Below the pieces are notes generated by a model. The model did no database searches, was not told the DNA's origin, and saw nothing but the letters and a program-made list of their open reading frames with translations. Below are positions 3,889 to 59,692 of a stretch of 64,000 nucleotides of DNA, piece by piece. The stretch's first letter is position 1. Every line of letters starts with the position of its first letter. Origin of the DNA: Fidelibacterota bacterium (GTDB lineage: Bacteria; Fidelibacterota; UBA8477; JABMPR01); assembly GCA_016784025.1 (NCBI GenBank), contig JADHVL010000005.1:104733-168732 (forward strand), read 5' to 3'. The position numbers and the translations under genes were made by a program.

Positions 3889-3907
3889 GTATCAAATTTT
3901 GTAATAA

Positions 3908-4300: not shown

Positions 4301-4333
4301 GTAAAAGTAAGCAAAGTACAGCCAAATTCAAGT

Positions 4334-4354: not shown

Positions 4355-4357
4355 TGT

Positions 4358-5955: not shown

Positions 5956-7260
5956 TTGAATATGTCATTATTAAAAAGCAAGTTAGAAGAGATCATCCCT
6001 AAATTTCGCGAGGAAGTAGGGGAGATAAGAAAGAATCATGGGGATAAAAAATTATGTGATGTAACTGTTGCTCAGGCATATGGTGGTATGCGTGGAGTTA
6101 AAGTTATGATTACCGAAACCTCTGCTTTGGATCCAGATGAAGGTATCCGCTTTCGCGGCTTTACTATCCCAGAGCTCCAGGAGAAACTCCCTCACGCTGC
6201 TGAAGGTGAAGAACCATTGCCCGAAGGACTATTCTATCTCCTCATGACCGGGGAGCTGCCAACCGAAGAAAATATTGCTGAAATCACCAAGGAATGGCAA
6301 GAGAGGGGAACGCTTCCTGAACATGTCTACAAAGCTATAGATGCACTTCCAAAAGATACACATCCCATGACACAGTTCTCAGTGGGTATTGTTGCTCAAC
6401 AGACTGAATCAATTTTTGCTGCAGAATATCGCAAGGGCATCAACAAAATGGATTACTGGAAACCTGTCTATGAAGATACTATGAATCTCCTAGCCCGTCT
6501 TCCTGCCCTGGCAGCCTATATTTATCTTCGTTCCTACAAAGATGGCAAAGTCATTCCTGCTGATCCTACACTTGATTGGGGTGGTAACTTTGCTCACATG
6601 ATGGGCTTTGATACCAAGATGTTCAGAGAACTAATGAGAATATACCTGACCATTCACGCAGATCACGAGGGTGGCAACGTATCAGCACACACAACACATC
6701 TTGTGGGATCTACTTTGTCTGATGTTTATTATGCTTTATCAGCGGGTATGAATGGCCTGGCAGGTCCACTACACGGTCTGGCAAATCAAGAAGTATTGCG
6801 TTGGATCATGGATGTAAAAGATCAGCTGGGTGGTGGTGTTCCCACCATGGAAGACTTAAAGAAATTTGTCTGGGATACACTTGCTTCAGGTAATGTTGTT
6901 CCTGGATATGGTCATGCCGTATTGCGCAAGACGGACCCACGCTACTCAGCACAACGTGAATTTGCTCTCAAGCATATGCCGGAGGATGAACTCTTCCAGG
7001 TGGTAAGTATGCTGTATGAGGTTGTTCCACCTATTTTGCTGGAACAGGGCAAAGCCAAAAATCCATGGCCAAACGTAGATGCTCATTCTGGTGTACTTCT
7101 GGTTCATAATGGAATGCATGAGTATGATTTTTATACAGTGCTGTTTGGTGTCTCCCGTGCCATGGGTGTCTTGGCATCCACTATTTGGGATAGGGCAATT
7201 GGCCTGCCGCTTGAGCGGCCAAAATCACTCACAACAGAATACATCAAATCTATACTATAA
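5956..7260 (+). CDS. gltA: citrate (Si)-synthase, eukaryote-like type
   Basis: IRFRGFTIPELQ, HADHEGGNVSAHTTHLVGSTLSD, GLAGPLHGLANQEVL, VPGYGHAVLRKTDPR, DAHSGVLL. Confidence 0.95.
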   Translation: MNMSLLKSKLEEIIPKFREEVGEIRKNHGDKKLCDVTVAQAYGGMRGVKVMITETSALDPDEGIRFRGFTIPELQEKLPHAAEGEEPLPEGLFYLLMTGELPTEENIAEITKEWQERGTLPEHVYKAIDALPKDTHPMTQFSVGIVAQQTESIFAAEYRKGINKMDYWKPVYEDTMNLLARLPALAAYIYLRSYKDGKVIPADPTLDWGGNFAHMMGFDTKMFRELMRIYLTIHADHEGGNVSAHTTHLVGSTLSDVYYALSAGMNGLAGPLHGLANQEVLRWIMDVKDQLGGGVPTMEDLKKFVWDTLASGNVVPGYGHAVLRKTDPRYSAQREFALKHMPEDELFQVVSMLYEVVPPILLEQGKAKNPWPNVDAHSGVLLVHNGMHEYDFYTVLFGVSRAMGVLASTIWDRAIGLPLERPKSLTTEYIKSIL

Positions 7261-7282
7261 AAAGCGGGGATCAGACCGATAC

Positions 7283-7309
7283 AAAGCCCTGGGTAGCACC
7301 GGGGCTTTT
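7283..7309 (+). terminator. stem-loop downstream of citrate synthase
   Basis: AAAGCCC...GGGGCTTT hairpin followed by tatgtttt. Confidence 0.6.
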
Positions 7310-7447
7310 ATGTTTTATAAAATCACTTATGAATATCGGGCAAATATTAGTAGGTTGATCTCCAGCCAATAATAAATTTGACGATTAATGTCGATAAATT
7401 TTATGCATAGGATTCATGCTGTGATCAACTCGGAAAAAATATAACTA

Positions 7448-7900
7448 ATGCAGTTAATCGATACACGGGTACTCATTGTTGAAGATGAGATAGTTGTGGC
7501 CAGTGAAATTAAACTGAGGCTTGAAGCAATGGGTTTTCAAGTTATAGGAATTGTGAACAATGGCCGAGATGCCATCACTGAAGCCAATGAACATTACCCT
7601 GACATCATACTCATGGATATAACCCTGAAGGGCAAGATGAATGGTCTCGAAGCCACACGCGAGATCACCAGAGAAACTGATATACCCGTAATATTCATTA
7701 CAGCCCATACGGATACGCCTACACTTGATTCAGCTCGCGAAGCAAGCACGCATGGGATTTTCACAAAACCATTTAGTGATGATGAATTAATGGTTGCCAT
7801 TCAACAGGCAACCATCTCAAAAGTGATGACAACTTACCTTGAAGCTGAAGATAAGAGAAAAGACGATGCAGATAATGCTGAGGGTGAAATGGGTGAGTAA
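7448..7900 (+). CDS. response regulator (receiver domain)
   Basis: VLIVEDEIVVASEI, DIILMDITLKGKMNGLEA, PVIFITAHTD, FTKPFSDDEL. Confidence 0.92.
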   Translation: MQLIDTRVLIVEDEIVVASEIKLRLEAMGFQVIGIVNNGRDAITEANEHYPDIILMDITLKGKMNGLEATREITRETDIPVIFITAHTDTPTLDSAREASTHGIFTKPFSDDELMVAIQQATISKVMTTYLEAEDKRKDDADNAEGEMGE

Positions 7901-7922
7901 ACTCTATACCAGCAACAGCATC

Positions 7923-10900
7923 TTAAAGATATTTGACTAGGCCTCCCTGGTCTTTTTCAATTATAAAACCAAATTTATAGAAATATCCAGGATGGAGAAA
8001 TCCTGTGGTAATCATCTTTTTCTTAGCATTTCGCATTCGGTTGACAAATTCATTCAGAAGACCCCTGCTAATCCCACCACCTCGATGATTGTCCGAGACC
8101 ACAACCTTATCCATGTAAACCACCTCTTCTCCCTGGTCGAGATAGAAAAGACCACCAATGACACGGCCTTTCTTATTTAGAGCCACCAGGAATTTGTGTT
8201 CATGGGTGAAATTGACATCCATGCGAGCCTTTACAAAATGTTGCTGCAGCTGAATGATTTCTTTTGGATGCATCGCACGTCTAATCCTAAAAGTGGTTCC
8301 CTTGCTATCATGACGCGAGATCATAATCTCTATCTGATCCATGGCAGTGGAGCGAGTAGCAATAAGTTCAATATCTTCGCTAGGAGGCAATTCAGGAAAG
8401 GCCAGTCTTTTAAGAAAAAATGAGCAGTAATCATCCAACTCGTTCGATCCAATATACTGGCTAATTTCACTTTGGAGGCTTCCGCCATCCAGGGAGCGCT
8501 GACGTAGGTTGCGTCCCAGGAGTGCCAGATATTCTTTCAACTTTGAATCGGACTCAGAAAATACAGTATGCATAAATAATTGAACTCGAGCATCAGGATA
8601 TTCAGGTTCGCTGTCCTGGATATTATAGTCTTTATACAGGTCCTTCAGGAAATGAGCTTTTGCATTCAGGGTGGCGTCCTGATTAATCAATAGCCAACGA
8701 TGATATCGGCGGATGGCAAAATAGACTGTTTTGGTTTGGAAACCCTCATCCTCAACCCTTGAAAGAAAACTGAGGAGATCATTCTTCCGGAGGGGAGAAA
8801 TCGCCTTATCAGCTAGTATGGCCTTGAAAAACGCAGGGGAATGTTTTTGTCCCAAGGCTTCCCGCATGGCGTGATATACGATATCCGTACTTACTTTGAG
8901 TTTGAATTTTGGAAATTCCTTCTCAGTAGCCCGTACAAATAGTTCTTCAAGATTCTCAAAAAATTCGAGTTCGGATGAGACTTCGGTGATGCCGGAAATA
9001 GATACCAGTCTACCACCAACATGGTAGTCATGAATTGGAACCACGATTTTTCCTGGACTGGGAACAGAAATGATCTTCTTGAATCGAGTTCTCTTCCAGA
9101 AACTCGTATAGGTAAGTACTGAGGTCCACACAAAATGCGGCCATATATGCTCAGGCGAAGGCATCTCATCTGAAGATCCAGCCCATTCTGCCTGCTTTAA
9201 ATATTGTCTTACTGTCAATCCTGAAATAAACTCTTCTGACCAGAGATCTTGCTCAGGTTTATAAGATCCCAGTGTCTCGACCAATTGATTGAATTGACTG
9301 TCCCGGGCGCAAGCCATTAACCAGAATAGTTCGGTATTGACTTGATCTGAACTGAGATCATCGTTCAAATTGAAGACGAATTTAAAGCTGCCTTCACTAC
9401 TCTGTATGGTGACACGATAGACTGTTTTCCCATGTGCACTTCCCAATAAATTGATCCAGATGCCCTGGGGTGGAATTTTATGAAGGGATAGCTGCTTGCC
9501 CTCAAAGAAAAGATACATTGATTCATTCAGGATTGAAGTGTTGACAAATGCTGATGTGATACGGTCGCGGTGCTCGATTGAAACCGGTTTATCAAATACC
9601 AGGACGTCTTCCCAATCCAGGGTCTGCTCGTGTTGAATTCTCGTTGTCTCTGGATCCATATCCTGCATGGACCTGGAAAAATTTTCATTCAACATTTCAT
9701 AGGTTTTGAGGATTTCCTTAGAGATTCTACTTTTTGCGGACAGGTTGACACTAGAGCTGATCATGGCCGTTCTGATTGTAGCATAATATTGAGGGAACTG
9801 TTTTGACCAGGAATAAAGTATTCCCAGGACATTTTCAAACAGGATAGAGGGTTTTTCTGCCTGGGCTTCTTGATTTGACAACCATTTTAAATAATTGGCA
9901 GACAGCTTGACCTTGTGAATATTAATATTGGACCAGGATGAGTTTCCCGAGTCCCGATTAAAGAGCACCTTTCTGCCCAGGGCATAGCTGACTATTCTTT
10001 CAAGATCATTTGCCGGGTAGAGAGCAACAACCTGTTCAACGGCAAACTGGGCCTGCACCAGATCATCAGAGCGAATAAGACGCAGGAAAGCATACCGGAC
10101 TATGTGTCTAATGCTTTCATTGGAATTTGAATATATCCGATTTAACAAACGATAGGCTGATTGGGAGGGGTGGAGCGTTTGAGAGTACACCAACATAATG
10201 ACCGGTTTTAATGCTTCCAGCGAATAATCTGAGTGTTTCAATGCCTTCTCGACTTCAGCCTCGGCCTGTAACCTGGCTCGGTCTGAAAAATCAAGATCGG
10301 TCCAGGTACCTGGAAGGAGGGTGGGCTTTAAGGCGATGGGTTTTATTCTCAAGTGGGAGTAGTCCAAAAACTCCTCTAACTCCTGGTTCCCTATGCAATA
10401 GGCGGGCTGTCTTATGAAATCTTGAAATTGGAGTATCTCTCCCTGGAATTGATAGAAAAAGTCACCGATTCTAATCTCATTCTTGCCTGGTTCTATTCTC
10501 AAGGCGTGTCGTTTATTCCTATGCTTGAGAATCTGGTCTTTAAAGACCAGATCATTTTGTGTCCAACCCCGCTGCAAAAAGACCCAATTGGGGATTTGGA
10601 TTTCAAGGTCCTCCATAAAGAAGGATTTATAGGATCTTTCATAGAGGGATTCTACCGTATCCTTAAAATGCTCCAGGATTGAGGCACGCTTAAAGGTTCC
10701 TTTTTCAGTTAGTTCACCCAAATCTTTACTAAAATCTCGGTTGACTTGTATAAAATCGACAATTCTCTCAAAGGGAGCCAAAAAGGAGTTCACAGAGTGA
10801 ATGACGTTCCCAACATAGTCTCGGACTTTCTGCCTGTCTGACCAAATATCCCTGAGATCTTTGTGCTTCTTATTCAACCTCACCAGGGCCGTGTTATAAG

Positions 10901-46245: not shown

Positions 46246-46289
46246 TATGAAGCATATTTCAAATCATCTCAATGAGCGAGGAGGTCTCC

Positions 46290-47522
46290 ATGAATAATCT
46301 GTTTTTACTAATGTCCCTCATCATACTGGTAGCCTGTGGTGATAGTGGTTCTAAGCTCAAGGAGGTGGAACGTCCCCAGGACGTGGTGAGCAAGCGAATT
46401 CAGGTGTATTCTGATTCTATCTACAACCGTATGGCTGATGAATGGAAGGCATATTATGAGGTATTTCCCTCTGAAGCGGCCTATGCCAATTGGATGTATG
46501 CTACGCGCTATGCTGGTCAGGCTGATTATAAAAAACTTTTGATGGAAGGTATTAAAACGTATCCTGCAAATCCTACTCTGCTCTATTTGGCAGGGATGCG
46601 AGAACATAAAATGCCCTCTTCAGATAGTGATCTGGCTTTGACTATCCGAGCTGCAGAACTTGATCCTAACTATATGGATCCGTGGTTCAATCTGGTATCA
46701 GAGTTTTTGTCGAGAGGCGAGATGGAAAAAATGGACAATGCATTACAGCATCTTCTTCAAGGGGCAGGCATATCCGAAGAAGTGATGGACTACAACTATA
46801 ATCTTCTCGCCAATCTTGAAGAAAATGCCATCCTGATAACAAATGGGGACAACGATACTTATCCTGGTTGGATATTGCAGCGTATTCTCAATCATCGTCC
46901 AGATGTGAAAATTGTGAACCGCTCACTTCTCAATACCAACTGGTATGTTTTCCATGTAATCCGCCAGGGAGTACCTCGATTTATCACAAATGCAGAACTT
47001 GAGGAACTTAAAAAAACAACCAGGGGCCCCTGGGATGATCTGCTGATAAACAGGATAATTGAAGCAGGTAGTGATGAGAACTTGCCAGTATACTTCTCAC
47101 ACACCCTGTATTTGACAGAAGGTATATCCGAACCTATGATAAATGGTCGCAAACTAGGGCTGGCAACTCTGGTGACGCCTGCAGATAAATCATACCGTGA
47201 CCAAATGCTTCGTGTGGCTGACCTATGGATTAATGAATTTCGGACCAGCGGTATGGAGAGCTGGCAATTAAGATATGGCACCAAAGCGAGCGCTGGTCTT
47301 AGATTAATGGGAAATTATGCCAGGGGAATACTGGCCTTGGTTAAAGAGCTGGATAGCACCCATCCTGAATTTTCCCTTGAGCTATTTGAATGGTATCAGG
47401 ACTATTGTCTGGAGCTGTTGTCGGATCAAAGTCGTGATGCTATTGGTAGTACATGGGCTGAAATTTCAATTCACAAAACTATTCAGGCCTGGTGCCGGCA
47501 GGAGAGGTATTTACAGGATTGA
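46290..47522 (+). CDS. lipoprotein with C-terminal region resembling the soluble domain of DUF2723-type proteins
   Basis: Lipobox LILVAC; AILITNGDNDTYPGWILQRILNHRPDVKIVNRSLLNTNWYV; start at ATG with gaggaggt RBS. Confidence 0.72.
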   Translation: MNNLFLLMSLIILVACGDSGSKLKEVERPQDVVSKRIQVYSDSIYNRMADEWKAYYEVFPSEAAYANWMYATRYAGQADYKKLLMEGIKTYPANPTLLYLAGMREHKMPSSDSDLALTIRAAELDPNYMDPWFNLVSEFLSRGEMEKMDNALQHLLQGAGISEEVMDYNYNLLANLEENAILITNGDNDTYPGWILQRILNHRPDVKIVNRSLLNTNWYVFHVIRQGVPRFITNAELEELKKTTRGPWDDLLINRIIEAGSDENLPVYFSHTLYLTEGISEPMINGRKLGLATLVTPADKSYRDQMLRVADLWINEFRTSGMESWQLRYGTKASAGLRLMGNYARGILALVKELDSTHPEFSLELFEWYQDYCLELLSDQSRDAIGSTWAEISIHKTIQAWCRQERYLQD

Positions 47523-48049
47523 GCGATTGGCAGGACTATAATCTGGCAAAACGTGGCGATGGATCCGCCTGGAAGCGTCTGGTTGATCTCCATATCAAGG
47601 ACCTGACCCGATTGGCAGGTATGTTAACTGGTTCGCATGACCTGGCGCAGGATGTCGTTCAGGAGGTCATGTTAGAGTTATTTCGTAAACCTCCCAAACA
47701 TCAGAACGGGACTCTCAAGGGTTGGCTGACAACTGTAACTTATCATACCGCTTTAAAATGGAAAAAGCAGCATTCCGGCTGGTTTACTCTAGGAAAGACA
47801 GACCCTCCTGATGGGCATCTGCAGCCCCTGACAAAGTTGATCCATGATGAGCAGAATAGAGGATTGCTCGACATCATTCATTCCCTGGATGAGACACATT
47901 GGGAGGTACTCATTCTACGCTTCTATGGAGATAAATCACTCCTGGACATATCTACCCTCCTGGACATACCCCTAGGTACTGTAAAATCCAGATTGTTCTA
48001 TGGTGTTAAACACTGTCGCAAGCTTATGAAAGACAAAGGACTCACATAA
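47492..48049 (+). CDS. ECF-type RNA polymerase sigma factor
   Basis: DLAQDVVQEVMLELFRKPPKHQ, GWLTTVTYHTALKWKKQ, LRFYGDKSLLDISTLLDIPLGTVKSRLFYGVKHCRK; start could be TTG 47519. Confidence 0.92.
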   Translation: MPAGEVFTGLSDWQDYNLAKRGDGSAWKRLVDLHIKDLTRLAGMLTGSHDLAQDVVQEVMLELFRKPPKHQNGTLKGWLTTVTYHTALKWKKQHSGWFTLGKTDPPDGHLQPLTKLIHDEQNRGLLDIIHSLDETHWEVLILRFYGDKSLLDISTLLDIPLGTVKSRLFYGVKHCRKLMKDKGLT

Positions 48050-48459
48050 TGGAGAAGAGAACGAGACATATAGATGAAGATAAACTGCTGAAGTATGTCC
48101 TGGAAACCCTCGAACCAGCTGAAGACACAGAAGTTGAAAGACATCTTCGAGAATGTCAGGCATGTTCTGATGAAATTACCAGCATGATGGCAGATATTGC
48201 ATCGATTAAAGCTCTGGAGGTATCAGTTGAGACTCCGCCGATTCCTTTCCCGTCTACCTACTCCAGGGACTGGAGAATGGTTCTTGGAGCAGCGGCACTT
48301 ATTATAGTTGGATTTGGATTGGGGGTGTTGACTCGATCTGTGAGTAACAACAGAGATATTACCCTCTATTCCATGGCAGCTCCCCATCAAACCATTACCA
48401 CACAATCTGGGAATCATTCCACCTGTATCAGTGACAACCTAAGCATCTATTTGGATTGA
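48049..48459 (+). CDS. anti-sigma factor (zinc-finger type, one TM)
   Basis: HIDEDKLLKYVLETLEPAEDTEVERHLRECQACSDEI; TM segment; overlaps sigma gene. Confidence 0.88.
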   Translation: MEKRTRHIDEDKLLKYVLETLEPAEDTEVERHLRECQACSDEITSMMADIASIKALEVSVETPPIPFPSTYSRDWRMVLGAAALIIVGFGLGVLTRSVSNNRDITLYSMAAPHQTITTQSGNHSTCISDNLSIYLD

Positions 48460-48470
48460 CTGCTTCTGCT

Positions 48471-48523
48471 GCTGGCAGGCGAGCTTGAGATAGAACCTAC
48501 GACTTTTGGCTTGTGAGTCCAAA
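48471..48523 (-). repeat. degenerate tRNA 3'-half-like fragment (candidate att remnant)
   Basis: Reverse complement TTGGACTCACAAGCCAAAAGTCGTAGGTTCTATCTC resembles anticodon-loop to T-loop; no 5' half or CCA-side acceptor found. Confidence 0.5.
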
Positions 48524-49036
48524 CGGATATGCCTAAACATATTATATCTGTTAAGAATCATTTCCAGGCGTGTCAATAATGTGGCAAAATTGCCACTGAT
48601 TAATCCACAAGACATATTGCAATTTAATCGGGTATTATGACACAAGGAGGTTTCCGAATAGTAATTAGGGCAATAAGCAGTATCTCTTTTGTCTTATATA
48701 CATGTGTCAAAGGTTAATAAGTTGAACTATAAGCGTATTAGGTAATATTATTAGTTGCCAATAAGCAATAAGCGTGCTATTTTTAAACAACTATCTTTAC
48801 GTCATTTACGGCTGGAATTAATTCACTATCGTTTCAATCTGAGGGAAAAAGAATCACACCTTCATAGTGAAGGGGGGAACAATGAGATATCAAATTTTAC
48901 GGTTTACTCCTTATAGTGTATCAGCTTTGTGCATTGTCATGCTTCGCCACTCCTCCTCTCCTAAGATTGATCCCACATTTATATAATGAAATGAATTGTA
49001 ATGTTTAGATAAATCAAACTCTAGAAGGGGGCAAAA

Positions 49037-49966
49037 ATGGAAAAAGATTTTCATTTTTATGTTACATATGCACTAGCTTACAAGGCAGGTTTCTCCAGTC
49101 AGGAATCACGAAACATAGCCTACTCATCTCAGTATTTAGACGATAATAACGAAAGTCAATATCCCAGAGATGATGGACCACCAGAGTTTCCATTTGGTAT
49201 TAGAACCAGTACTGGTTTTTTTAGACCCATCATGACGCAATCGATGTCAGTAAAATCTCTAGTTTATGAGATACAAAAATTTGTCTATGTTCCATTCCAT
49301 TTTCTCCCTGGTGATAATAATCGACCCATAAATGGTGAGCTTAATAAATATAGTACAACCCCTGACTCGAAAAATGCCCGAGATGTTTTGAGATCAGCTC
49401 TCAAAACGAAAAATCCGTACAGGATCGGAATTGCTGTTCACACATATGCAGATACCTGGTCTCACCAGAATTTTACTGGCTACGAAGAAGATTGGAATTC
49501 AGTTTTTCATTGGCGGAACCCGTTCAGGTCTATAGCTCCAAATATCGGACATTCGGATGTAGGTCACTTACCAGATGAAATATCTTCGAGCTGGAATGAC
49601 TATCGTCTTGAGAAACCCTATCGATCAAGAAATAATAAGAAAAATGCCCTCCAGGCTTGTAAGCGAATTTTTCAAGAATTGAGAAGAGGGCAAAAGGGCA
49701 AATTGTATTGGACTCAGGTTGAGAAGGACTTTAGACAGATAATCAATGCTGAAGATTATGATGATCGAATTAAAAAAGTGAAAGATTATTTGAATGAGCC
49801 TAATCTCAGCTATAGGGAGGAAGAGTGGATTGACAAAGCGGTTAAGGGCAGAAAAGGAGAAGACATTCAAGCCTCAGCTGACTTTATAAATACGGACTGG
49901 TATAATTTTCAGTTAGCTGCAAAGGCACATCTCGTGTATGTGCTAGATTTATTGAAAAACTATTAA
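49037..49966 (+). CDS. DUF6765-like protein (HxxxDxxxH motif)
   Basis: MEKDFHFYVTYALAYKAGFSSQESRNIAYSSQYLDD; GIAVHTYADTWSHQNFTGY. Confidence 0.75.
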   Translation: MEKDFHFYVTYALAYKAGFSSQESRNIAYSSQYLDDNNESQYPRDDGPPEFPFGIRTSTGFFRPIMTQSMSVKSLVYEIQKFVYVPFHFLPGDNNRPINGELNKYSTTPDSKNARDVLRSALKTKNPYRIGIAVHTYADTWSHQNFTGYEEDWNSVFHWRNPFRSIAPNIGHSDVGHLPDEISSSWNDYRLEKPYRSRNNKKNALQACKRIFQELRRGQKGKLYWTQVEKDFRQIINAEDYDDRIKKVKDYLNEPNLSYREEEWIDKAVKGRKGEDIQASADFINTDWYNFQLAAKAHLVYVLDLLKNY

Positions 49967-50392
49967 ATGAGAATAGTCCTACCTGAGTTAGGAGATAAAG
50001 TAAGTACTGCTCAAGCTCTTCGATTATGTATCGAGTTCAAGCTAGAATATCTAAGAATAAGAATAGAGGCCAATCCAGAGGAATACAAGGAATGGACTTT
50101 TGATGGGTGTTCCGGTATTCCAGACCAATTATTGAAGATATTCACGAATAAAAACTGGCAGGACATCACATATGATTGCTGTTTACCTCACGATCTTTGT
50201 TATGGTTATGGAGAATTAGGTAATAAGGCTGAGAGAAAACAGGTGGACTTACAATTTCGTCAGGACCTCATCAACAAGGGAGGTATGAAAAAAACGGTGG
50301 CATTTGCCTTCTATACAGCAGTGCGGTTGGGAGGGTATGCAAAGCTAAGTCTCCCATTTTCCTGGGGGTTTGCTAAAAAAGTCAAATCATAA
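49967..50392 (+). CDS. phospholipase A2-like protein
   Basis: FDGCSGIPD...ITYDCCLPHDLCYGYGELGNKAERKQVDLQFRQDL (CCxxHDxC active-site-like motif); start abuts upstream stop (TAAATG). Confidence 0.75.
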   Translation: MRIVLPELGDKVSTAQALRLCIEFKLEYLRIRIEANPEEYKEWTFDGCSGIPDQLLKIFTNKNWQDITYDCCLPHDLCYGYGELGNKAERKQVDLQFRQDLINKGGMKKTVAFAFYTAVRLGGYAKLSLPFSWGFAKKVKS

Positions 50393-50419
50393 TTATCAAT
50401 TATTTCAGGGAGTATATCT

Positions 50420-51109
50420 GTGAGAACTAATTTGAATATCAAGTACGGATCATGGGTACTAATCGGTCTTCTGTCATTGGTGATCTTATTTATAGAGTGT
50501 AGCCCGGATACTGAAAGAAGATACATTCGTAAGGAATCATCTAATGCGGCCCCTTCAAACGAGCTTGATAGACTATTAGCTGAAATGGAATTTGCGTCAA
50601 TTGCATTCAATACCCCGAAAAATATTAACATTGATGAATCTCCTACAATTCAGCTAATTTTAAGTCTCTCTGAGACAATTGAGGAATTAGAGCAATCGAT
50701 TGCAATAGAGGGTGAGAGAATTGGTGCGTCTATCAAGGTTAGCAATAGGATGGAAGCTCAACTCAAAGGGGAGAAGTTTACTATATCAGCCATAACTCCC
50801 GAAATCCAAGCAGTATCGCGGATTGAAAGAACAGAATGGAAATGGCGGGTACATCCCAAAAGGGAAGGTAAACATTATCTAGACCTGACAATATCTGCCC
50901 ATGTCGAAATTGACGGACATAACACTCGACGTAAAATCCGTGTATTTGAGAGAATTATTGAAGTTAATGTTTTCCCAACTCAGAAAATCAATTTTTTTAT
51001 CAAAGACAATTGGAAATGGTTATGGGCTGCCATTTTGGTGCCAATCTTTGGTTGGTTTTGGAAGAAAAGGAAAAGTAAAAATTTGGGCCAGTCAGGTCCA
51101 GAGGGATAA
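50420..51109 (+). CDS. membrane-anchored protein with predicted beta-sandwich domain
   Basis: N-terminal hydrophobic segment with Cys, C-terminal TM WKWLWAAILVPIFGWFWKKRK, strand-rich EWKWRVHPKREGKHYLDLTISAHVEI. Confidence 0.65.
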   Translation: MRTNLNIKYGSWVLIGLLSLVILFIECSPDTERRYIRKESSNAAPSNELDRLLAEMEFASIAFNTPKNINIDESPTIQLILSLSETIEELEQSIAIEGERIGASIKVSNRMEAQLKGEKFTISAITPEIQAVSRIERTEWKWRVHPKREGKHYLDLTISAHVEIDGHNTRRKIRVFERIIEVNVFPTQKINFFIKDNWKWLWAAILVPIFGWFWKKRKSKNLGQSGPEG

Positions 51110-51256
51110 AATGTCATCCCTTTATATATAGAAGATTGGGGTATTTGATTAGATGGTGTAATCATCTGAAAAATAATATCCAGTACGAGGTCAATTTATG
51201 GATCAAGGATAAAAATATTTTATGCAAACAAAGGAATCATTTTTTTAGGAGGAAAT

Positions 51257-52144
51257 ATGTCAGACCTAATGTTACTTGTGTTGTTGAAAGTTGCATACCT
51301 TGCCTGCGGATTGACTTTATGTATAATAGGCAAAAATCTGATTAAAAAGAAATTTGAAACTAAATTCGAGGGTGAGGGATTGATTGCGAAGACTTCGTTC
51401 AAAATAGCAACAACATCACCGGGACTTGTATTTTTAGTCGCAGGTCTCATTGTCATTGGTGTCGCAATTTTTCAACAATCTGAAATTAGCGAAGCCTACC
51501 ACGAAGCAACATCAAAAAATAAAGAGTGGAAGACTCAAGAGCTAAAGACAACAATGACGGATGACTATGATGTTCTTGTAGAAAAGATTCGTACTATACG
51601 ATTTGCACAGGAAGCCGATAGAACTCAATTTATTAATACAGAGTTAAAACAGGCTAAGGACCTGGCTAATGCGGGAAAGGTTAATGAAGCTGCAGTTCAC
51701 CTATCTATTGCTGTTGTTTTTCAACCAGCAGCGTTAGCCAATATTGTATCTGATTCAGCATATTTTTCTGTAATAAAACTTCCCCAGTTTAACACTATCA
51801 CGACAGCTCGTTTTGAGTTGCCTTTACACACTACTCGCTTGCCAGTAAATTCTCTCTCCCCTATAGCTGAGGTAGTAGTTACAGGCCTTCAGACGTTGGC
51901 TTCGCGTCAAAAATTAAAAGATGAACAAGCGCTTGAGGCTTGGACTATCGCAAATTTGATACCAATCACTAGGGATATCGAGTCGACAAAAATGACTGTC
52001 AACAGACTAGTTGAGTTACTTGATAAATCCCCTCATGTTTTATTGGAGCACTTAAGTGATGTAAATGGACGTTGGATTCTTGAAGATCAAAATATTTTAA
52101 GTGAGCTTGAGGTTGTAATAAACTGGAAAATTCAAAATGAATAG
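51257..52144 (+). CDS. membrane protein, two N-terminal TM segments, hypothetical
   Basis: RBS aggaggaa; hydrophobic segments; overlaps next CDS by 8 nt. Confidence 0.65.
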   Translation: MSDLMLLVLLKVAYLACGLTLCIIGKNLIKKKFETKFEGEGLIAKTSFKIATTSPGLVFLVAGLIVIGVAIFQQSEISEAYHEATSKNKEWKTQELKTTMTDDYDVLVEKIRTIRFAQEADRTQFINTELKQAKDLANAGKVNEAAVHLSIAVVFQPAALANIVSDSAYFSVIKLPQFNTITTARFELPLHTTRLPVNSLSPIAEVVVTGLQTLASRQKLKDEQALEAWTIANLIPITRDIESTKMTVNRLVELLDKSPHVLLEHLSDVNGRWILEDQNILSELEVVINWKIQNE

Positions 52145-53771
52145 GGCATGTGAGCAACCTCTTATTTCTATTCAAGATCGGTTCGCTGGTAGCTTCCTTA
52201 CGTCACTGTTTCTTTGTTTGATTATTGCATGTTTTTGGCCGGGGAAGACTGTTGTAGCTCAGAACAAGAATCCATTCTTAGACCAAACAATAGGATTTAG
52301 CAAAAAATGGAATTATACATTTGTGGCAGAAGTTTTATCACAACTCCGTTTCGATAGTAGAGAAAAAGGTGATATGGAATTATATGCACTTCTTCAGAAC
52401 ACAAGGATTGTAGTTCCAAATAAATCGTTGAAGGAAGCTTTTCCCAATGCTTACGCTCTTGCAGACGAGCAGGCTAACTGGGTGGTGATTGAAGAACGAT
52501 GGATGAATCAAGTCGCTGGATTTGCTGATCTTGGAGCGTTATACTCACTTCCTGTACTTGGAACAAACTATGCTACATTTGCTAATAAAACTTTTTACAA
52601 GTTCTGTAGGCAATTTCAGGATACATATCGAGTTTCATTACGTGAAAATGTGCATAAGACTCCAGTTTATATGTTTAAGTTTGAAGATTATTTAAATCGC
52701 TCTGATCCCAAATGGGGTGTGGATTACTTAATGTTTGACAAACTGACTGGTTTGGTTTTTGTAAATACTATCGTGTGGACATTTCTCCATGAAGTTGGTC
52801 ATCATGCACTCGGACATACTAAAGCAGTTGCTGGGAATTATCACACAAATCGACAACAAGAGTTGGATGCTGATGCGTGGGCATTTTCGCGTATGAAAGC
52901 TTTGGAATATTCTTTGTTTGGCGTTGGAAGCTACATGGTCGCCCGGTCAATGACTGAAGCTTGCCTCGAAGAACTCGAGCTTCTTGGCCATGAGGAGGAT
53001 AGCTCACATCCGAAATGGCTAAATCGCGATATAGCATTACGTCGTGATTTTGATGTATTAGCTGCACCCATGCAGGATCCACGAATATTCCATATTCCGA
53101 TGGGAATACCTGAGCCAGTTCTAACAACTATTACTATTCCTGATTCAATGTCGGATGTTCTCGAAGCGAGTATTCTTCAAAAGGGTAACATGTCAATTGG
53201 AATGGTCGAGTGGGATAATAATACCGTCAGAGTATATAGACGAGAATCGACAGGGGGCAGAATTGAGTATATTATAAAAGACCAGATGCAAAAGATGCAA
53301 TTAATTGAGCAAAGACAGTATGACACTCAAAACCGTTTGGTTAATACAATAGAATTACCTGCTATACAAGTCGATGTGGCGATATTTGATTTTCTAATAA
53401 TTGAAGGCATGAAAATAGCGGATATTAAGAATCGTCACGGAGGGAGACATAAATTAATAGTGATTCACCTGCGAAGGGTTGGTATCTCAGATTCAGCGAT
53501 TCAGCAGGTGTTGGCTGCGGTTGACCAATATTTGGAGGATAGACGATACTTTGGACTGCAGTATGCGAAAGGGATTATTGGCTTTTCAACGCTTTCTGAA
53601 AAAGTGAGAGAGAAAGCTACCTCTTATGAACAGCACCTTATTGGGATTCTCGGTGAGAGCCTCTATATTGCATTCACTGAATCGTATTCCAATGAAATAG
53701 AGCAGTTTTCTCCCCCCTCAACTGGGATCGACATCTGGGAAGAAAAGATATTTAATGATAATACAAACTGA
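52137..53771 (+). CDS. predicted zinc metallopeptidase (HExxH), exported/membrane-anchored
   Basis: FLHEVGHHALGHTK ... QQELDADAWAF (HExxH plus downstream Glu); N-terminal hydrophobic segment. Confidence 0.8.
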   Translation: MNRACEQPLISIQDRFAGSFLTSLFLCLIIACFWPGKTVVAQNKNPFLDQTIGFSKKWNYTFVAEVLSQLRFDSREKGDMELYALLQNTRIVVPNKSLKEAFPNAYALADEQANWVVIEERWMNQVAGFADLGALYSLPVLGTNYATFANKTFYKFCRQFQDTYRVSLRENVHKTPVYMFKFEDYLNRSDPKWGVDYLMFDKLTGLVFVNTIVWTFLHEVGHHALGHTKAVAGNYHTNRQQELDADAWAFSRMKALEYSLFGVGSYMVARSMTEACLEELELLGHEEDSSHPKWLNRDIALRRDFDVLAAPMQDPRIFHIPMGIPEPVLTTITIPDSMSDVLEASILQKGNMSIGMVEWDNNTVRVYRRESTGGRIEYIIKDQMQKMQLIEQRQYDTQNRLVNTIELPAIQVDVAIFDFLIIEGMKIADIKNRHGGRHKLIVIHLRRVGISDSAIQQVLAAVDQYLEDRRYFGLQYAKGIIGFSTLSEKVREKATSYEQHLIGILGESLYIAFTESYSNEIEQFSPPSTGIDIWEEKIFNDNTN

Positions 53772-53888
53772 TTTGGTGTAGGTCGAAGGAAATAACAACA
53801 ATTAGAGGGAGTAAGAACTTTTTATCATTTATATATAAAATGAATGGAGTTTTGAACCAAGTATTAAGATTTAAATTGAGGAGTATAC

Positions 53889-54206
53889 GTGAAAAGATAC
53901 TTATATTTTCTAATTGTTAGTTTTTTAATAATTGCATGTGCTAGTCGAAAATCAAATTCTTTTGACATGTCGGCACCTGAATCGTATTGGCCTCCTATTA
54001 GTGAATATACTGACATGGAACTCCATGAATTGAGTGTTGAAATTAGCATGATCAAAAAGAATTATGATAGTTTCAAGAAATTTGATGACCAAAAGAATCG
54101 TCGGCTAACAATACAGGCAAAAAATCGTCTCGAATTGCTGATTCAACTATATTCCGTTAAGTCTGGTAGGAATATTGAATCAGTTCGCAAGATGTTTGGT
54201 GTATAG
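53889..54206 (+). CDS. small putative lipoprotein
   Basis: MKRYLYFLIVSFLIIACASRK lipobox. Confidence 0.65.
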   Translation: MKRYLYFLIVSFLIIACASRKSNSFDMSAPESYWPPISEYTDMELHELSVEISMIKKNYDSFKKFDDQKNRRLTIQAKNRLELLIQLYSVKSGRNIESVRKMFGV

Positions 54207-54433
54207 GTCGAATTGAATTTATAAATATCAATATCCGTGTCACGTAATGGTGTTACCATAATATCGCATTGATTGGGGTCAGAATGATATGTTGATACGT
54301 TACAATCATTTCCAAAGCCTGCGAAGTAATTACGTACCCATAACATATCTATTCTTGCTACACCTATTTCCATTTAATTACATTCGGATAAATAAATACA
54401 GCCCTTAGAGACTTTATTCTTCAAGGCCTTGAG

Positions 54434-54600
54434 TTGTAGCGGCCTGTCCTGCCGAAGCTGGACCCAGCCAACGGTGGAGGGAGAGGCGTAGGTGGAGAGC
54501 AGGATTGGCTGAGCGTCATCCCTCCGGGATTCTCTCGCCTTCCTCCTCAAACTTGCCGCCCTTATTCGCTTTCAGCTACGCCGTGGCGAGCTGGCAACTT
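54434..54600. repeat. GC-rich non-coding element of repeat-like character
   Basis: Abruptly GC-rich segment inside AT-rich intergenic DNA, no supported ORF, adjoins tRNA-like fragment. Confidence 0.4.
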
Positions 54601-54640
54601 TGCTCCGGATCGAACCTATGACCTTTGGGTTATGAGCTAG
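54590..54640 (-). repeat. degenerate tRNA-Met-like 3'-half fragment (candidate att remnant)
   Basis: Reverse complement AGCTCATAACCCAAAGGTCATAGGTTCGATCCGG: CAT anticodon loop through TTCGATC T-loop, no 5' half. Confidence 0.6.
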
Positions 54641-54761
54641 ATGAACATTCATAGTTAACAGGTAGTTGCATAGTTAATGTGGCGTATGTGTTACCTAGTC
54701 TGCACCGTCTAATGAGACTGCAATATAGCGATTGAATTATGAGACACCCTTTCTAGGGATC

Positions 54762-56414
54762 TTACAACTTATTTGGCCAGTCCATTGGCAGGTTTCCCTT
54801 CGGCAAATCCTTATTGAACAGAGCCTCTGCGATACCATCACCTTCTGTTCCGGGAAGCCAGGCAACCAATGTGGCTTCAAATCTATCCACGTAGCTGGTT
54901 ATCAGGAGTGGTCGACCTGTTATCAGGATAAGCAATACTGGAATAGTGATATGATCTAGTGCTGTGAGAAATGCTTTCTGATCCAACGGAAGTGTTAAAT
55001 CCTTTGAGTCACCGTGAAATTCTGCATAGGGGTATTCTCCAACAACGGCGATGATAAGATCTGTTCCATCTGGGATGTCTGCCTCATTCGAATAGCCAAT
55101 GTTTATATGAGGAGGTGCCTGGTTAATTATGCCTTCCAAAATAGTTGTACCCTCAGTGATCCTACCTTTATCGCCTTGCCAAGAAATGGACCAACCACCG
55201 CATTGCAGTCCGATATCATCGGCAAATTCTCCACAGACATGGATATGTTTAACGTTGGATTTCAGGGGAAGTATGGCGTCATTTTTCAACAGAACCAACG
55301 ATTCCACGACAGCTCTTCTAGCTATCTGCTTACTCTTCATGCGATCGATTTGTGTTGCTGAAGGCAATTCTGGTGCTTGAGTGTCCAGGAGGCCTAAAGA
55401 AGTTTTTGACGTTAGAATTCGTTCTACTGCATCATTGATACGCGATAATGGGATATCACCTTTAGACAGGAGTTCGAGTAATCCTGCATGGCATTCTTTG
55501 TATTTCCGAGATGTCATAATCATATCCAGGCCAGCGTTGACAGAAATTGATAGTGCATTAATATAGCGATTCTTGGGTGCGAGATCGTCTATGGCATCCC
55601 AATCTGAAACGACAAAGCCCTTAAATCCCAATTCATACTTGAGCAGGTCGCTTATCAGGGTTCGATTGGCATGGCAGGGTGTTCCATTCCATTGGTTGTA
55701 GGAGAGCATGATACTGCCAACTCCAGCAGCAATAGCAGATTCATAGGGTGGTAGAAAGCGAGCTCTTAACTCCGCGAGGCCCATCTCTGTGTTGCCTCGG
55801 TCTACACCTCCCTTAGTCCCGCCATCACCAATAAAATGCTTTGCGCATGCCAAAATCCTGGCTTTCCCCGATCCAAAATTGGTCTGGATGCCCCTCACGG
55901 CTGCAGCGCTTAACTGGGTAACAATTTCAGTCTCTGAAGAGAAACTCTCATAGGTTCTACCCCAGCGAGGATTGTCAAATACGGCGACGCAGGGTGCAAA
56001 ATTCCAATTGAAACCAGTAACAGCCAATTCTAGGGATGTGATTCGCGAAATCTCTTCCACCAACTGTGGATTATTGCCAGATCCTAAACCAATATTATGG
56101 GGAAAAAGTACTGAACCATAAAGATTGTTATGACCATGCACTGCGTCAGTACCCAGAAGCAGGGGTATAGCCATCGAGGACTGATTGGCATGATGTTGCA
56201 TCTTTTCGGACAATAGGGTCCAGGATTCTATTGTATTTGGCTGAGGTGCTCCACCACCATTAACAAATATTCCCCCTAAGTTGAACCGAGCAATATCATC
56301 AGGTGTTTCGAGATAACGGGGATCACTCAGGATCATCTGACCCACCTTTTCCTCTGGTGTCATCCCCTCAATGAGTGCTTTCACATTCGTGCGTTGGCTT
56401 GCCGAAAGTTCCAT
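54762..56414 (-). CDS. glycoside hydrolase family 3 (beta-glucosidase-like), no signal peptide
   Basis: KHFIGDGGTKGGVDRGNTEM, GFKGFVVSDWDAIDDL nucleophile motif, DAVHGHNNLYGSVLFPHNIGLG. Confidence 0.93.
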   Translation of the reverse strand: MELSASQRTNVKALIEGMTPEEKVGQMILSDPRYLETPDDIARFNLGGIFVNGGGAPQPNTIESWTLLSEKMQHHANQSSMAIPLLLGTDAVHGHNNLYGSVLFPHNIGLGSGNNPQLVEEISRITSLELAVTGFNWNFAPCVAVFDNPRWGRTYESFSSETEIVTQLSAAAVRGIQTNFGSGKARILACAKHFIGDGGTKGGVDRGNTEMGLAELRARFLPPYESAIAAGVGSIMLSYNQWNGTPCHANRTLISDLLKYELGFKGFVVSDWDAIDDLAPKNRYINALSISVNAGLDMIMTSRKYKECHAGLLELLSKGDIPLSRINDAVERILTSKTSLGLLDTQAPELPSATQIDRMKSKQIARRAVVESLVLLKNDAILPLKSNVKHIHVCGEFADDIGLQCGGWSISWQGDKGRITEGTTILEGIINQAPPHINIGYSNEADIPDGTDLIIAVVGEYPYAEFHGDSKDLTLPLDQKAFLTALDHITIPVLLILITGRPLLITSYVDRFEATLVAWLPGTEGDGIAEALFNKDLPKGNLPMDWPNKL

Positions 56415-56482
56415 GCTGCATGCTCCTGTTTTGATGGTGTTCTACTTCTGATGCTTTCGCCTAAAGGAAAAATAATTTACAA

Positions 56483-56496
56483 TGTAACGTATTACA
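56483..56496. promoter_or_regulatory. candidate LacI-family operator upstream of GH3
   Basis: TGTAA-CGTA-TTACA palindrome. Confidence 0.55.
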
Positions 56497-56724
56497 TTAT
56501 TTGAATAAATTAGTTAAGTATATATAAAACAATAATAAACAGCATATTTCTATGAATGCTACACTGATGTATATGGACTTGCATAGTGCATAATAGGAAT
56601 ATCCTTCCAATAGTCAAAGATTTATTAATGAAACCGATAGACTCATATCTAGGAGGAAAAAAATGAAGTTAAATAAAATATAAACAATAATATAAATGAC
56701 TCACACTTAGTTACTATAAATGAC

Positions 56725-56770
56725 TTGACAAGCGTTTGCACGTGGATATATTTAAATGTAATCGTTTACA
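56725..56770 (+). promoter_or_regulatory. lacI-type promoter with overlapping operators
   Basis: TTGACA-N16-TATATT; CAAGCGTTTG at 56729 and TGTAATCGTTTACA at 56757. Confidence 0.6.
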
Positions 56771-56813
56771 TACATAGGGCAATAGGACTACAAATTTCAA
56801 AAATGGTGATCCA

Positions 56814-57833
56814 ATGACAACTATTAATGATGTAGCGAAAAAAGCAAAAGTATCGACTGCAACGGTATCCCGGGTCCTAAATAATTCCGATAAGGTTAGA
56901 CCTGCCACCCGCGATCGAGTGAGTACGATCATCAAGGAGCTCAATTTTGTTCCCAATGTCAATGCCCTGGGATTACAACGGAAAAAGACAAAAACTGTGG
57001 GGCTAATATTCCCTGATGCCAGTGCATATTATTTTTCCGAGATTATGCAGGGGATTAACCGTCATCTATTCAAAAATGATCATCAGATTCTAATTTCCAG
57101 CGCTCACGATGAAGAAGAAGAGATAAAGACCATCAACGGTTTCGTAAATAGCGGTCGCATTGATGGACTCATTATTATGATGCCCTCGGCAAGAGATTAC
57201 AAAGGTCTTATAGACCAATTGAAAAATGAGATACCTGTGGTCTTCATCGCTTGTGAGATAGATGCACCTTATTCTACCACCATTTTGTTGGACAATTACA
57301 ATTCAGCCAAAGAGATGGTTCATCACCTATCCCAACTTGGTCGAACACGGATCGCTTTCATTCATGGTGGTGAACACAATTATGATGCCCGAGAACGTCA
57401 TCGAGGCTATATCGATGCTAGAAGTGAATACCAGCTTGATGAGAGTGAGGAACTGGAAGTGATGGGCAACTTTACTGAAGCCTCAGGATTTCAGGCGACG
57501 CTGGCACTCATGAAACGCAGCCCAGCGCCCACGGCAATTTTTGCAGCGAACGACGCCATGGCTATTGGTGCCATCGAGGCAGCCAGAGTGCTGAAGCTAT
57601 CTGTACCTGCAGATTTAGCCATCGTTGGATTTGATGATATCTCACTAGCAGCCTATCTTGATCCTGCACTTACCACAGTACATGTACCATTGAGGCGTCT
57701 AGGACATCTTGCTGGGGAATCTCTTCTGAAGAATATGAATATGGACCCCACTGAGCGGACTACAGAAAAAATTATTATTCCGCTAAAACCAGTCATTCGC
57801 AGATCCTGCGGTAGCGAGCAGGAATCAGCATAA
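56814..57833 (+). CDS. LacI-family transcriptional regulator
   Basis: TTINDVAKKAKVSTATVSRVLNNSDKVRPATRDRV; VGFDDISLAAYLDPALTTVHVP. Confidence 0.96.
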   Translation: MTTINDVAKKAKVSTATVSRVLNNSDKVRPATRDRVSTIIKELNFVPNVNALGLQRKKTKTVGLIFPDASAYYFSEIMQGINRHLFKNDHQILISSAHDEEEEIKTINGFVNSGRIDGLIIMMPSARDYKGLIDQLKNEIPVVFIACEIDAPYSTTILLDNYNSAKEMVHHLSQLGRTRIAFIHGGEHNYDARERHRGYIDARSEYQLDESEELEVMGNFTEASGFQATLALMKRSPAPTAIFAANDAMAIGAIEAARVLKLSVPADLAIVGFDDISLAAYLDPALTTVHVPLRRLGHLAGESLLKNMNMDPTERTTEKIIIPLKPVIRRSCGSEQESA

Positions 57834-57928
57834 TTAGATTTGTAAAAGGAATCCTTGATCCATGGGAAATAATTGGATCTGATTTCAAACACAAGGTTTC
57901 AATAATGAGGGAAAAAAAGGAGAGCGTC

Positions 57929-59692
57929 ATGAAAAAATTACAAGTAATTCTGGTACTCCTGGTGGTTCTCACCACTTTGAGTTATCCGGTAACAGTTGTA
58001 GCTGGAAGTCATGTTGATCCGGCTTTTATCAAGGTCGTGTCAGTTGAAACCGCGCCTATCGTAGATGGTGTTCTAGATGAAAATGCATGGGCTCGCCGTT
58101 ATGATCGATTGGTTTTTAATGCCGGTATGGGTACTGGTGATGTAGACTTCGCCGTTACAGGTGGAGTTGAAGTCCAAGCCCCATATACAGACACCACAAG
58201 TACGATTGTTAAGATTGTGCATGATGGTCTGGATTTGTATATCAGTCTGGATTCCGATGACAAAAGTGTCTGTCGCTTCAATGGCAGTTGGGAAGGTGAC
58301 GGTCTCTTCATGAAGGTGAAGGACGCCAGCGGAACAGATGTAGAATATAAGCTATACTTCAACTTAGAGGGTACGGACCCTGATATCCACCTGGAACTCC
58401 CGGGTCTATATCCATCATCCGCAGAAGGAGCCGCCTTTAAAAAATCAGGTACTATAGTAAACGATACCACAAGTGTTGATTCAGGATATACTGCAGAAAT
58501 GGTGATTCATCTTGCTGATCTTGGGTATACTGACCCCTATAGTGATATTCAGGTATTGATCAATATCTTTGATCCTGATGGTTATACTGGTGTAGCCGGA
58601 GAAGCCTGGGATGTGGGACAATTTTACAAAGCCTGGTGGGGAAGTGAGTGGGGTCCAGATATGCGCATTCTGCGATTGTCAGATCCACCGAACCGCATCG
58701 CTTTAGCTACTGAAGATGATATTGTCATGGATGGTCAAATCACAGAGAGCTTTTGGGGAGGTGCCGAAACCGTGATAGTGGGTCGCGATACGCATGGATC
58801 AACGGGTGGATATTATTCACAGTGGAGCGATCCAGCAAATGATTACACGGATGCCAGTGAAGCGGTGATTCGATTCGTTCACAAAGGTGAATTGCTTTAT
58901 ATCGCTGTAGAATCAAATGATATGTCTGTAGGCAAGTGGTCTCCAGGCTGGGAAGCTGATGGCCTGTTTCTCTGGATGACAGACAAGGGAGACTATGCCC
59001 CAGCTGCCCGCAAAGAGATCAAGGCTATGTATTTTAGTGGTGTGGAAGGGGATGGAATCTCCTTTGAGACCAACGATCAAATTCCCACTGGATCAGCTGA
59101 AGGCGTGAGCTTTGAACCAGAGGGTACAGTAACTCACACTGGAACCAATGGTGACGATGCTGGATATTCCCTTGAGTTGGTTATCAATACCGCTGATTAT
59201 GGGTACGAAGTGGGTGATACCGTTCGCTTGAGTGCAGTCATTTGGGACTTGGATTATTCCAGTGCAGATGAATATGATGCAGCAATTGCTGATTATGCAC
59301 CTGAATGGTGGGGCACTCAATGGGCTGATCCCAATTTTGAAAGATACTTTATGTATCGCGGAGTCGTCTTGAGTAGTAGTCCTGTTTCGACGGACAACTC
59401 TATTGCCGGACCAACTGATTTCAGCCTTTCTCAGAATTATCCTAATCCCTTCAACGCTGGGACAGTGATAAATATTTCTGTGCCCGCAGCAGGGAATGCC
59501 AATTTGGAGATTTACAATGTGCTGGGACAAAATGTTGCTACCCTATTTAATGGCTATCTATCTGAAGGCAGTCACAGTTTCTCGTGGAATAGCCTGGGAG
59601 ATAACAACCAGCAGGTCAGCACTGGCATGTATTTTTATAGATTGACAGTAGGTGATCAGGTTGCCACAAAGAAAATGGTGATGATCAAATAA
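57929..59692 (+). CDS. secreted protein with two CBM9/DOMON-like domains and C-terminal sorting domain
   Basis: Signal peptide MKKLQVILVLLVVLTTLSYPVTVVAG; duplicated VDGVLDENAW / MDGQITESFW modules; NYPNPFNAGTVINISVP...MYFYRLTVGDQVATKKMVMIK. Confidence 0.85.
   Translation: MKKLQVILVLLVVLTTLSYPVTVVAGSHVDPAFIKVVSVETAPIVDGVLDENAWARRYDRLVFNAGMGTGDVDFAVTGGVEVQAPYTDTTSTIVKIVHDGLDLYISLDSDDKSVCRFNGSWEGDGLFMKVKDASGTDVEYKLYFNLEGTDPDIHLELPGLYPSSAEGAAFKKSGTIVNDTTSVDSGYTAEMVIHLADLGYTDPYSDIQVLINIFDPDGYTGVAGEAWDVGQFYKAWWGSEWGPDMRILRLSDPPNRIALATEDDIVMDGQITESFWGGAETVIVGRDTHGSTGGYYSQWSDPANDYTDASEAVIRFVHKGELLYIAVESNDMSVGKWSPGWEADGLFLWMTDKGDYAPAARKEIKAMYFSGVEGDGISFETNDQIPTGSAEGVSFEPEGTVTHTGTNGDDAGYSLELVINTADYGYEVGDTVRLSAVIWDLDYSSADEYDAAIADYAPEWWGTQWADPNFERYFMYRGVVLSSSPVSTDNSIAGPTDFSLSQNYPNPFNAGTVINISVPAAGNANLEIYNVLGQNVATLFNGYLSEGSHSFSWNSLGDNNQQVSTGMYFYRLTVGDQVATKKMVMIK

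What the first reader, a model, noticed from the sequence alone, without database searches (positions are those of the whole stretch)
48471..54640. Candidate undescribed six-gene phospholipase/metallopeptidase island
Seen: six co-oriented genes with tight spacing: DUF6765-like, PLA2-like (stop TAA directly abuts ATG), membrane-anchored beta-rich protein, 2-TM protein, HExxH peptidase (8-nt overlap), small lipoprotein. The cassette is visibly more AT-rich than its neighbours and bounded by tRNA-like fragments. Inference: two potentially lipid-acting enzymes plus membrane sensors and a protease look like a mobile envelope-targeting, defence or antagonism module; function is unproven.
Basis: partly seen in the sequence, partly recalled or inferred. 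Interest (0 to 1): 0.78.

Follow-up and report, generated by a model that had tools for sequence, protein, structure and literature searches.

The report
Acquired island with lipid-enzyme gene pair
A marine bacterium has picked up a 6.1-kb patch of foreign DNA at a tRNA-scar insertion hotspot; two of its genes, probably lipid- or phosphoester-cutting enzymes, recur side by side in other bacteria, while the other four look like unrelated passengers of unknown function.

Summary
Six co-oriented ORFs lie at 49037-54206, with the stated spacing and low GC. Degenerate tRNA-Met 3' fragments flank them at about 48488 and 54607. A congeneric species (G013) has the empty site: window 48461-54597 (about 6.1 kb) is missing from otherwise collinear DNA. 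Another congener (G009) has a tyrosine integrase at the same spot. This is therefore a genomic island in a tRNA-Met-scar hotspot, without its own recombinase.

The idea of a conserved six-gene cassette is not supported. Only genes 1-2 form a recurrent unit. DUF6765 and its PLA2-like partner are adjacent in Desulfobacterales (70-75% and about 57% identity) and in three other arrangements. Genes 3-6 were never found with them. Gene 3 has solitary homologues on Paraburkholderia and Calothrix plasmids; genes 4-6 have no confident homologue.

DUF6765 is most likely a divergent, cytosolic, PLC/S1-P1-type multi-zinc phosphodiesterase. Evidence: ordered invariant His/Asp, weak PF00882 matches in 17 of 72 members, and a Met1-His6 spacing equal to Trp-His in S1-type relatives. 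Profile-profile and Foldseek tests did not reach significance. PLA2 membership is well supported and its catalytic residues are intact.

A defence role is not supported: neighbours of DUF6765 are no richer in defence genes than distal controls.

The parts
48461..54597 (.). Inserted genomic island (about 6.1 kb), absent at the collinear site of G013
   Evidence: blastn window vs G013:C22: 44001-48460 = 701-5158 (87.7%) and 54598-58430 = 5165-9000 (95.1%)
48488..48517 (-). Degenerate tRNA-Met(CAT) 3'-half fragment, left end of the island
   Evidence: 23/30 match to the intact tRNA-Met 3' segment; null maximum 19/30 per 64 kb
49037..49966 (+). Gene 1, DUF6765 (309 aa, no signal peptide or TM); putative multi-zinc phosphodiesterase; invariant M1,H6,D35,H88,H135,D139,H143,H172,D180
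   Evidence: PF20551 2e-70; A4 invariants; AF2 pLDDT 94.6; 17/72 members match PF00882 weakly
49967..50392 (+). Gene 2, prokaryotic PLA2-like (141 aa, no signal peptide); invariant D46,C48,C72,H75,D76,D94
   Evidence: PF09056 6.4e-5; family profile hits PLA2 structures 4aup 1.8e-8 and 1faz 6.9e-5; start abuts the stop of gene 1
50420..51109 (+). Gene 3, N-terminal TM + about 130-aa beta-rich domain + C-terminal TM; homologues on Paraburkholderia and Calothrix plasmids
   Evidence: tblastn 41.7% over 186 aa, 5e-33; hydropathy shows the N-terminal TM, the C-terminal one is read by eye
51257..52144 (+). Gene 4, two N-terminal TM helices + helical domain; orphan
   Evidence: No homologue in plasmids; only E~8e-4 fragments in the phylum; hydropathy
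52137..53771 (+). Gene 5, exported HExxH metallopeptidase (HEVGHH...ELDAD); orphan outside the HExxH core
   Evidence: Weak local hits to Lit / U41 / U49 / M78 / M48; no relative in 100 related genomes, GTDB contigs, plasmids or viral contigs
53889..54206 (+). Gene 6, small lipoprotein (105 aa, lipobox LIIAC)
   Evidence: Sequence; only non-significant Acinetobacter matches
54497..54615 (-). Repeat also found in contig C33: tRNA 3' end interrupted by a palindrome-rich insert
   Evidence: 85% over about 120 bp to G000:C33:8609-8729; sequence comparison
54607..54636 (-). tRNA-Met(CAT) 3'-half fragment, right end; older scar shared with G013
   Evidence: 27/30; the same position in G013 holds a single copy

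Best explanation
A 6.1-kb island without its own recombinase was acquired at a tRNA-Met 3'-scar hotspot in a Neomarinimicrobiota genome (shown). Its functional core is a horizontally mobile, tightly spaced pair, DUF6765-PLA2 (pairing shown; translational coupling and function inferred). Both proteins lack signal peptides and so probably act in the cytosol on lipid, or lipid-derived, phosphodiesters. DUF6765 would use a zinc cluster whose ligands include the N-terminal amine of a retained Met1, His6 and the HxxxDxxxH motif, to cleave a phosphodiester (PLC- or S1/P1-like chemistry). The Ca-dependent PLA2 would remove an acyl chain from the same or the resulting lipid. Genes 3-6 are separately sourced envelope cargo: two membrane-anchored proteins, an exported metallopeptidase and a lipoprotein, with no demonstrated tie to the pair. 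Whether the pair serves lipid turnover or is a toxic effector is open; turnover or remodelling is slightly favoured, because the pair also sits beside core genes such as dsrMKJOP.
For: Empty site. Island ends at tRNA-Met fragments far above the null. The same site in G009 carries a Phage_integrase gene, 1.8e-17. Intact tRNA-Met genes and truncated scars occur across the genus. DUF6765 homologues at 70-75% identity in Desulfobacterales, with a PLA2 17-20 nt downstream in L042, L044, L045 (truncated in L043); reversed order in L056; overlapping and divergent in L119; lipoprotein-type PLA2 in L167. PLA2 profile match to solved PLA2s and invariant catalytic His/Asp. Invariant DUF6765 His/Asp set. 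Residue 2 is D/N/E/Q in 71 of 72 members, which should block Met removal, and the Met1-His6 spacing equals the Trp-His spacing of relatives matching nuclease S1; in S1 the N-terminal main chain ligates zinc (PMC5201275). PF00882 matches in 17/72 members, best 1.8e-4.
Against: DUF6765 versus PLC/S1-type profiles is not significant by hhalign (E 0.05-0.46). Foldseek finds no significant PDB match for a confident model. The model coordinates could not be inspected for a metal site. PLA2 accompanies only about 7 of the DUF6765 loci seen, so DUF6765 usually works without it. Cytosolic disulfides would be unusual for a PLA2, and the L167 PLA2 is a lipoprotein. No substrate evidence.
Confidence: 0.5

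Rival explanations
1. Anti-phage or abortive module: envelope proteins 3-6 sense infection and release the two phospholipases, which destroy the membrane.
For: Genomic-island setting. In L043 the pair lies beside a PDC-M48B-like MBL protein (4e-139), DUF4238, a SIR2-STAND protein and HsdM. DUF6765 on plasmids lies beside E1-E2 and type I RM genes, and in L005 beside a KAP/QatA-like NTPase. Phospholipase effectors exist in CBASS (CapV, e.g. PMC10653837).
Against: No enrichment of PADLOC hits within 3 kb of DUF6765 versus more than 5.5 kb away in the same loci. Genes 3-6 do not travel with the pair. The nearest relatives sit beside dsrMKJOP or ordinary genes. No sensor or cyclase gene recognised in the island.
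Confidence: 0.17
2. Interbacterial antagonism: PLA2 and/or DUF6765 are exported effectors and another island gene is the immunity protein.
For: Lipid-hydrolase effectors are common in antagonism systems (general knowledge). One PLA2 relative has a lipoprotein signal (L167).
Against: No signal peptide in genes 1-2; no recognisable VgrG, PAAR, Rhs or MIX gene in the island; no conserved immunity partner with the pair.
Confidence: 0.08
3. Pure passenger DNA: six unrelated genes accreted at a hotspot, decaying, with no joint function at all.
For: Genes 3-6 have no linked homologues; degenerate att fragments; no integrase.
Against: All six frames are intact. Genes 1-2 keep every invariant residue and are recurrently adjacent in several lineages.
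Confidence: 0.25

Closest known systems
tRNA-targeting integrative genomic islands (tyrosine-recombinase type)
   Same: Ends carry tRNA 3' fragments; an empty site exists in a sister species; an integrase is present at the same site in another congener
   Different: No recombinase of its own; both tRNA fragments are degenerate; it sits at a scar, not at the intact tRNA-Met, which lies elsewhere in congeners
Pfam PF20551 (DUF6765)
   Same: Full-length match 2e-70
   Different: Uncharacterised family (no paper in the library holds the name); this branch is the one that pairs with PLA2
PF00882 / S1-P1 nuclease / zinc-dependent PLC superfamily
   Same: Order of invariant His/Asp; N-terminal residue five before the first His; HxxxD motif; weak PF00882 hits in 17/72 members
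   Different: No significant profile-profile or Foldseek match; cytosolic; initiator Met instead of Trp or Pro at the N-terminus
Prokaryotic secreted PLA2 (PF09056; 1faz, 7ygk, 4aup)
   Same: DGCS...C-x2-HD-x2-Y motif; profile hits 6.9e-5 to 1.8e-8
   Different: No signal peptide; placed directly behind DUF6765
Lit phage-exclusion protease
   Same: Gene 5 resembles it over about 45 residues around HExxH
   Different: Score 23.5 against a cut-off of 274; gene 5 has an export signal, whereas Lit cleaves cytosolic EF-Tu (own knowledge)

Membership tests
Integrative genomic island at a tRNA | Direct repeats of a tRNA 3' end at both boundaries | tested here: met
   23/30 and 27/30 at the two ends, null maximum 19
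Integrative genomic island at a tRNA | Empty site in a close relative | tested here: met
   G013
Integrative genomic island at a tRNA | Encodes its integrase | tested here: not met
   None of the six ORFs; an integrase is present only in G009 at the same site. It is therefore filed as an island or cargo segment, not as a self-mobile element
DUF6765 (PF20551) | Match above gathering score over full length | tested here: met
   238.4 bits vs 26.6
PLC/S1-P1 superfamily | Ordered zinc-ligand set including N-terminal residue and His6 | tested here: met
   Invariant columns and N-terminal analysis
PLC/S1-P1 superfamily | Significant profile or fold similarity | tested here: not met
   hhalign E 0.05-0.46; Foldseek no hit at E<=0.001. 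Hence 'works like', not 'is a member'
Prokaryotic PLA2 (PF09056) | Catalytic His-Asp and Ca-site Asp; profile similarity to solved PLA2s | tested here: met
   the window protein alone scores 24.0 bits, below the Pfam cut-off of 29.4
Prokaryotic PLA2 (PF09056) | Secreted | tested here: not met
   No signal peptide in gene 2
Anti-phage defence system | Component profile match or enrichment near defence genes | tested here: not met
Anti-phage defence system | Phage protection phenotype | not testable with these tools
   Needs an experiment
Lit / Peptidase U49 | Full-length match | tested here: not met
   Only residues 207-252 match, below the cut-off

The most novel reading that the evidence does not exclude
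DUF6765 is a cytosolic branch of the PLC/S1-P1 enzymes in which the retained initiator methionine (protected by Asp/Asn/Glu/Gln at position 2) supplies the N-terminal amine ligand of a zinc cluster. With PLA2 it would form a mobile two-enzyme intracellular lipid-degrading module, possibly gated by envelope proteins on this island.
Probability: 0.35. Interest if true: 0.6.

Novelty: new variant of a known kind. Interest (0 to 1): 0.42.

Why it matters
It replaces a six-gene mystery cassette with two testable statements: a precisely bounded island at a reusable tRNA-Met-scar hotspot in an uncultured phylum, and a catalytic hypothesis for DUF6765, a domain of unknown function found in many phyla, with a recurrent PLA2 partner. 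If correct, DUF6765 becomes an enzyme family with a clear assay.

Tried and rejected
Six-gene module: genes 3-6 were searched in relatives, plasmids, phages, viral contigs and the DUF6765 loci (not every gene in every collection), with no linkage. Intact tRNA at the edges: ARAGORN and Rfam negative. Defence by association: anecdotal neighbours did not survive the near-versus-far control; that control is small, counts families rather than proteins, and includes generic helicase and kinase hits. DUF6765 as a formally proven PLC relative: hhalign and Foldseek not significant. Lit-like function of gene 5: similarity confined to HExxH, and the protein is exported. Phage origin: no DUF6765 or gene 3 in phage records; PHROG hits for gene 2 cover only the PLA2 core.

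Full report
What is there. The six genes are real and arranged as stated. Gene 1 (49037-49966) is a full-length DUF6765 protein. Gene 2 (49967-50392) begins on the base after gene 1's TAA. Gene 3 has TM helices at both ends around a beta-rich domain. Gene 4 has two N-terminal TM helices. Gene 5 is an exported HExxH protein overlapping gene 4 by 8 nt. Gene 6 is a small lipoprotein. Gaps are 0, 27, 147, -8 and 117 nt, so two or three transcription units are as likely as one. Sigma-70-like sites and terminators are not informative: 34 promoter-like sites against 20.7 expected. By hydropathy and the positive-inside rule (inference) genes 3-6 face the periplasm, and genes 1-2 have no export signal.

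It is an island. In G013, a congeneric species whose flanking glycosidase is 95% identical, the DNA runs from the equivalent of window 48460 straight to 54598. G013 keeps one tRNA-Met 3' fragment at the junction. The window has two, one at each end of the extra 6.1 kb; these are the two best matches in 64 kb, while shuffles never exceeded 19/30. Intact tRNA-Met(CAT) genes with this exact 3' half occur elsewhere in congeners, some with a recombinase-like ORF just beyond the 3' end (L186, L197; the copy in L199 is cut by its contig end) (ORF identity read by eye). Truncated copies joined to a similar 'ATGAACATTCATAAATAAC...GTGTGGCGTAT' end recur in G000 contig C33, G009, G010, G012 and G014. In G009 the same sigma/anti-sigma-adjacent site carries a Phage_integrase gene. 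The window is therefore a reused integration hotspot. The island itself has no recombinase and is probably a remnant or was mobilised in trans (inference). One MAG of this genus, G015, is the 'Candidatus Neomarinimicrobiota bacterium BH29' record.

What travels together. A scan of 85,462 genomes with a DUF6765 alignment returned 80 loci. The nearest are in Desulfobacterales at 70-75% identity, far closer than the DUF6765 copies compared within the window's own phylum (26-34%; present in 10 of 245 genomes), which indicates horizontal transfer. In L042, L044 and L045 a PLA2 homologue (about 57%) follows within 17-20 nt. L043 has a truncated PLA2 and L046 none. L056 has the reverse order; L119 (Mariprofundaceae) has a divergent overlapping pair; and an independent scan of 395 Desulfobacterota genomes for the PLA2 found one more pair, L167. 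PLA2 relatives occur in only 24 of those 395 genomes, so this adjacency is far above chance (inference from the frequencies), although most DUF6765 genes stand alone. A second recurrent context is lipoprotein + 90-aa protein + DUF6765, on Vibrio, Photobacterium and Aeromonas plasmids and two chromosomal contigs. Genes 3-6 never appear with DUF6765 elsewhere in the loci seen. Gene 3 has homologues on two Paraburkholderia plasmids and one Calothrix plasmid without the other genes. Genes 4-6 are effectively orphans.

What the pair probably does. Gene 2: the family profile finds solved PLA2 structures (4aup 1.8e-8, 8k1w, 7ygk, 1faz 6.9e-5). The catalytic His75 and Asp76/Asp94 and the Asp46/Cys48/Cys72 positions are invariant; the AF2 model is moderate (pLDDT 80) and its best Foldseek match is a PLA2 at E=0.14. 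Gene 1: 72 homologues keep M1, H6, D35, H88, H135, D139, H143, H172 and D180, and the AF2 model is very confident (pLDDT 94.6). Seventeen members match the zinc-dependent PLC family weakly, best 1.8e-4. S1/P1-like proteins from the same phylum match nuclease S1, with their Trp at its residue 1, and have His five residues later. In S1 the zinc cluster is held by the N-terminal main chain plus His and Asp (PMC5201275). DUF6765 has the same five-residue step from Met1, almost always with D/N/E/Q second, a sequence that Met aminopeptidase does not process (own knowledge), and no conserved N-terminal extension. Cytosolic PF00882 proteins here read MPxxxxH, which after Met removal gives the same spacing. 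Against this, profile-profile and fold searches were not significant. I therefore claim 'works like', not 'is a member of'.

Defence? Individual loci look suggestive: L043 lies amid PDC-M48B, SIR2-STAND and HsdM, and plasmid copies lie near E1-E2 and type I RM genes. A control on 120 proteins near and 120 far from DUF6765 gave no excess of PADLOC families near it. The control is coarse, but it removes the main argument. Gene 5's resemblance to Lit is limited to the zinc motif.

Verdict. Mobility is confirmed and sharpened. The 'six-gene module' reading is replaced by 'a recurrent enzyme pair plus unrelated cargo'. Function remains inferred.

Noticed in passing
L182, L187, L188, L191, L195 (genus-wide) and window 54637-54710: A family of integrative-element ends: truncated tRNA-Met 3' half followed by ATGAACATTCATAAATAAC...GTGTGGCGTAT (variable between copies), in several cases followed by an about 366-aa HTH-like gene (MAEEITISRQELYNLVWSKPVV...).
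   Followed up: partly
window 54420-54615; L016 5570-5760; L034 about 3190-3700: tRNA 3' ends interrupted within the T arm by short palindrome-rich inserts (GTAGCGGGAGTAGGATT-[insert]-CGAACC), several in a row in G009.
   Followed up: no
L020, L021, L022, L074, L093: Second recurrent DUF6765 operon: about 220-aa lipoprotein, about 90-aa protein, DUF6765, on Vibrionaceae and Aeromonas plasmids and on chromosomal contigs.
   Followed up: partly
L143, L144, L147, L149-L152: Cytosolic PF00882 proteins start MPxxxxH or MNxxxH, so the mature N-terminus (after predicted Met processing) is five residues before the first His, as in secreted Trp1 enzymes. This looks like a general N-terminal-amine metal-ligand rule; L145 fits only if its start is a CTG.
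   Followed up: partly
L043 7293-17038: The truncated DUF6765-PLA2 pair lies among DUF4238, a PDC-M48B-like MBL protein, a SIR2-STAND protein and HsdM: a dense defence-like island.
   Followed up: partly
L039 7770-14929; L040 2603-8609: Gene 3 homologues lie next to giant helicases (DruE-like, 1720 aa; SF2-UvrD fusion, 1668 aa) on Paraburkholderia and Calothrix plasmids.
   Followed up: partly
window 46272-48459: TPR-like lipoprotein + ECF sigma factor + zf-HC2 anti-sigma genes, conserved in several congeners, form the left flank of the hotspot.
   Followed up: no
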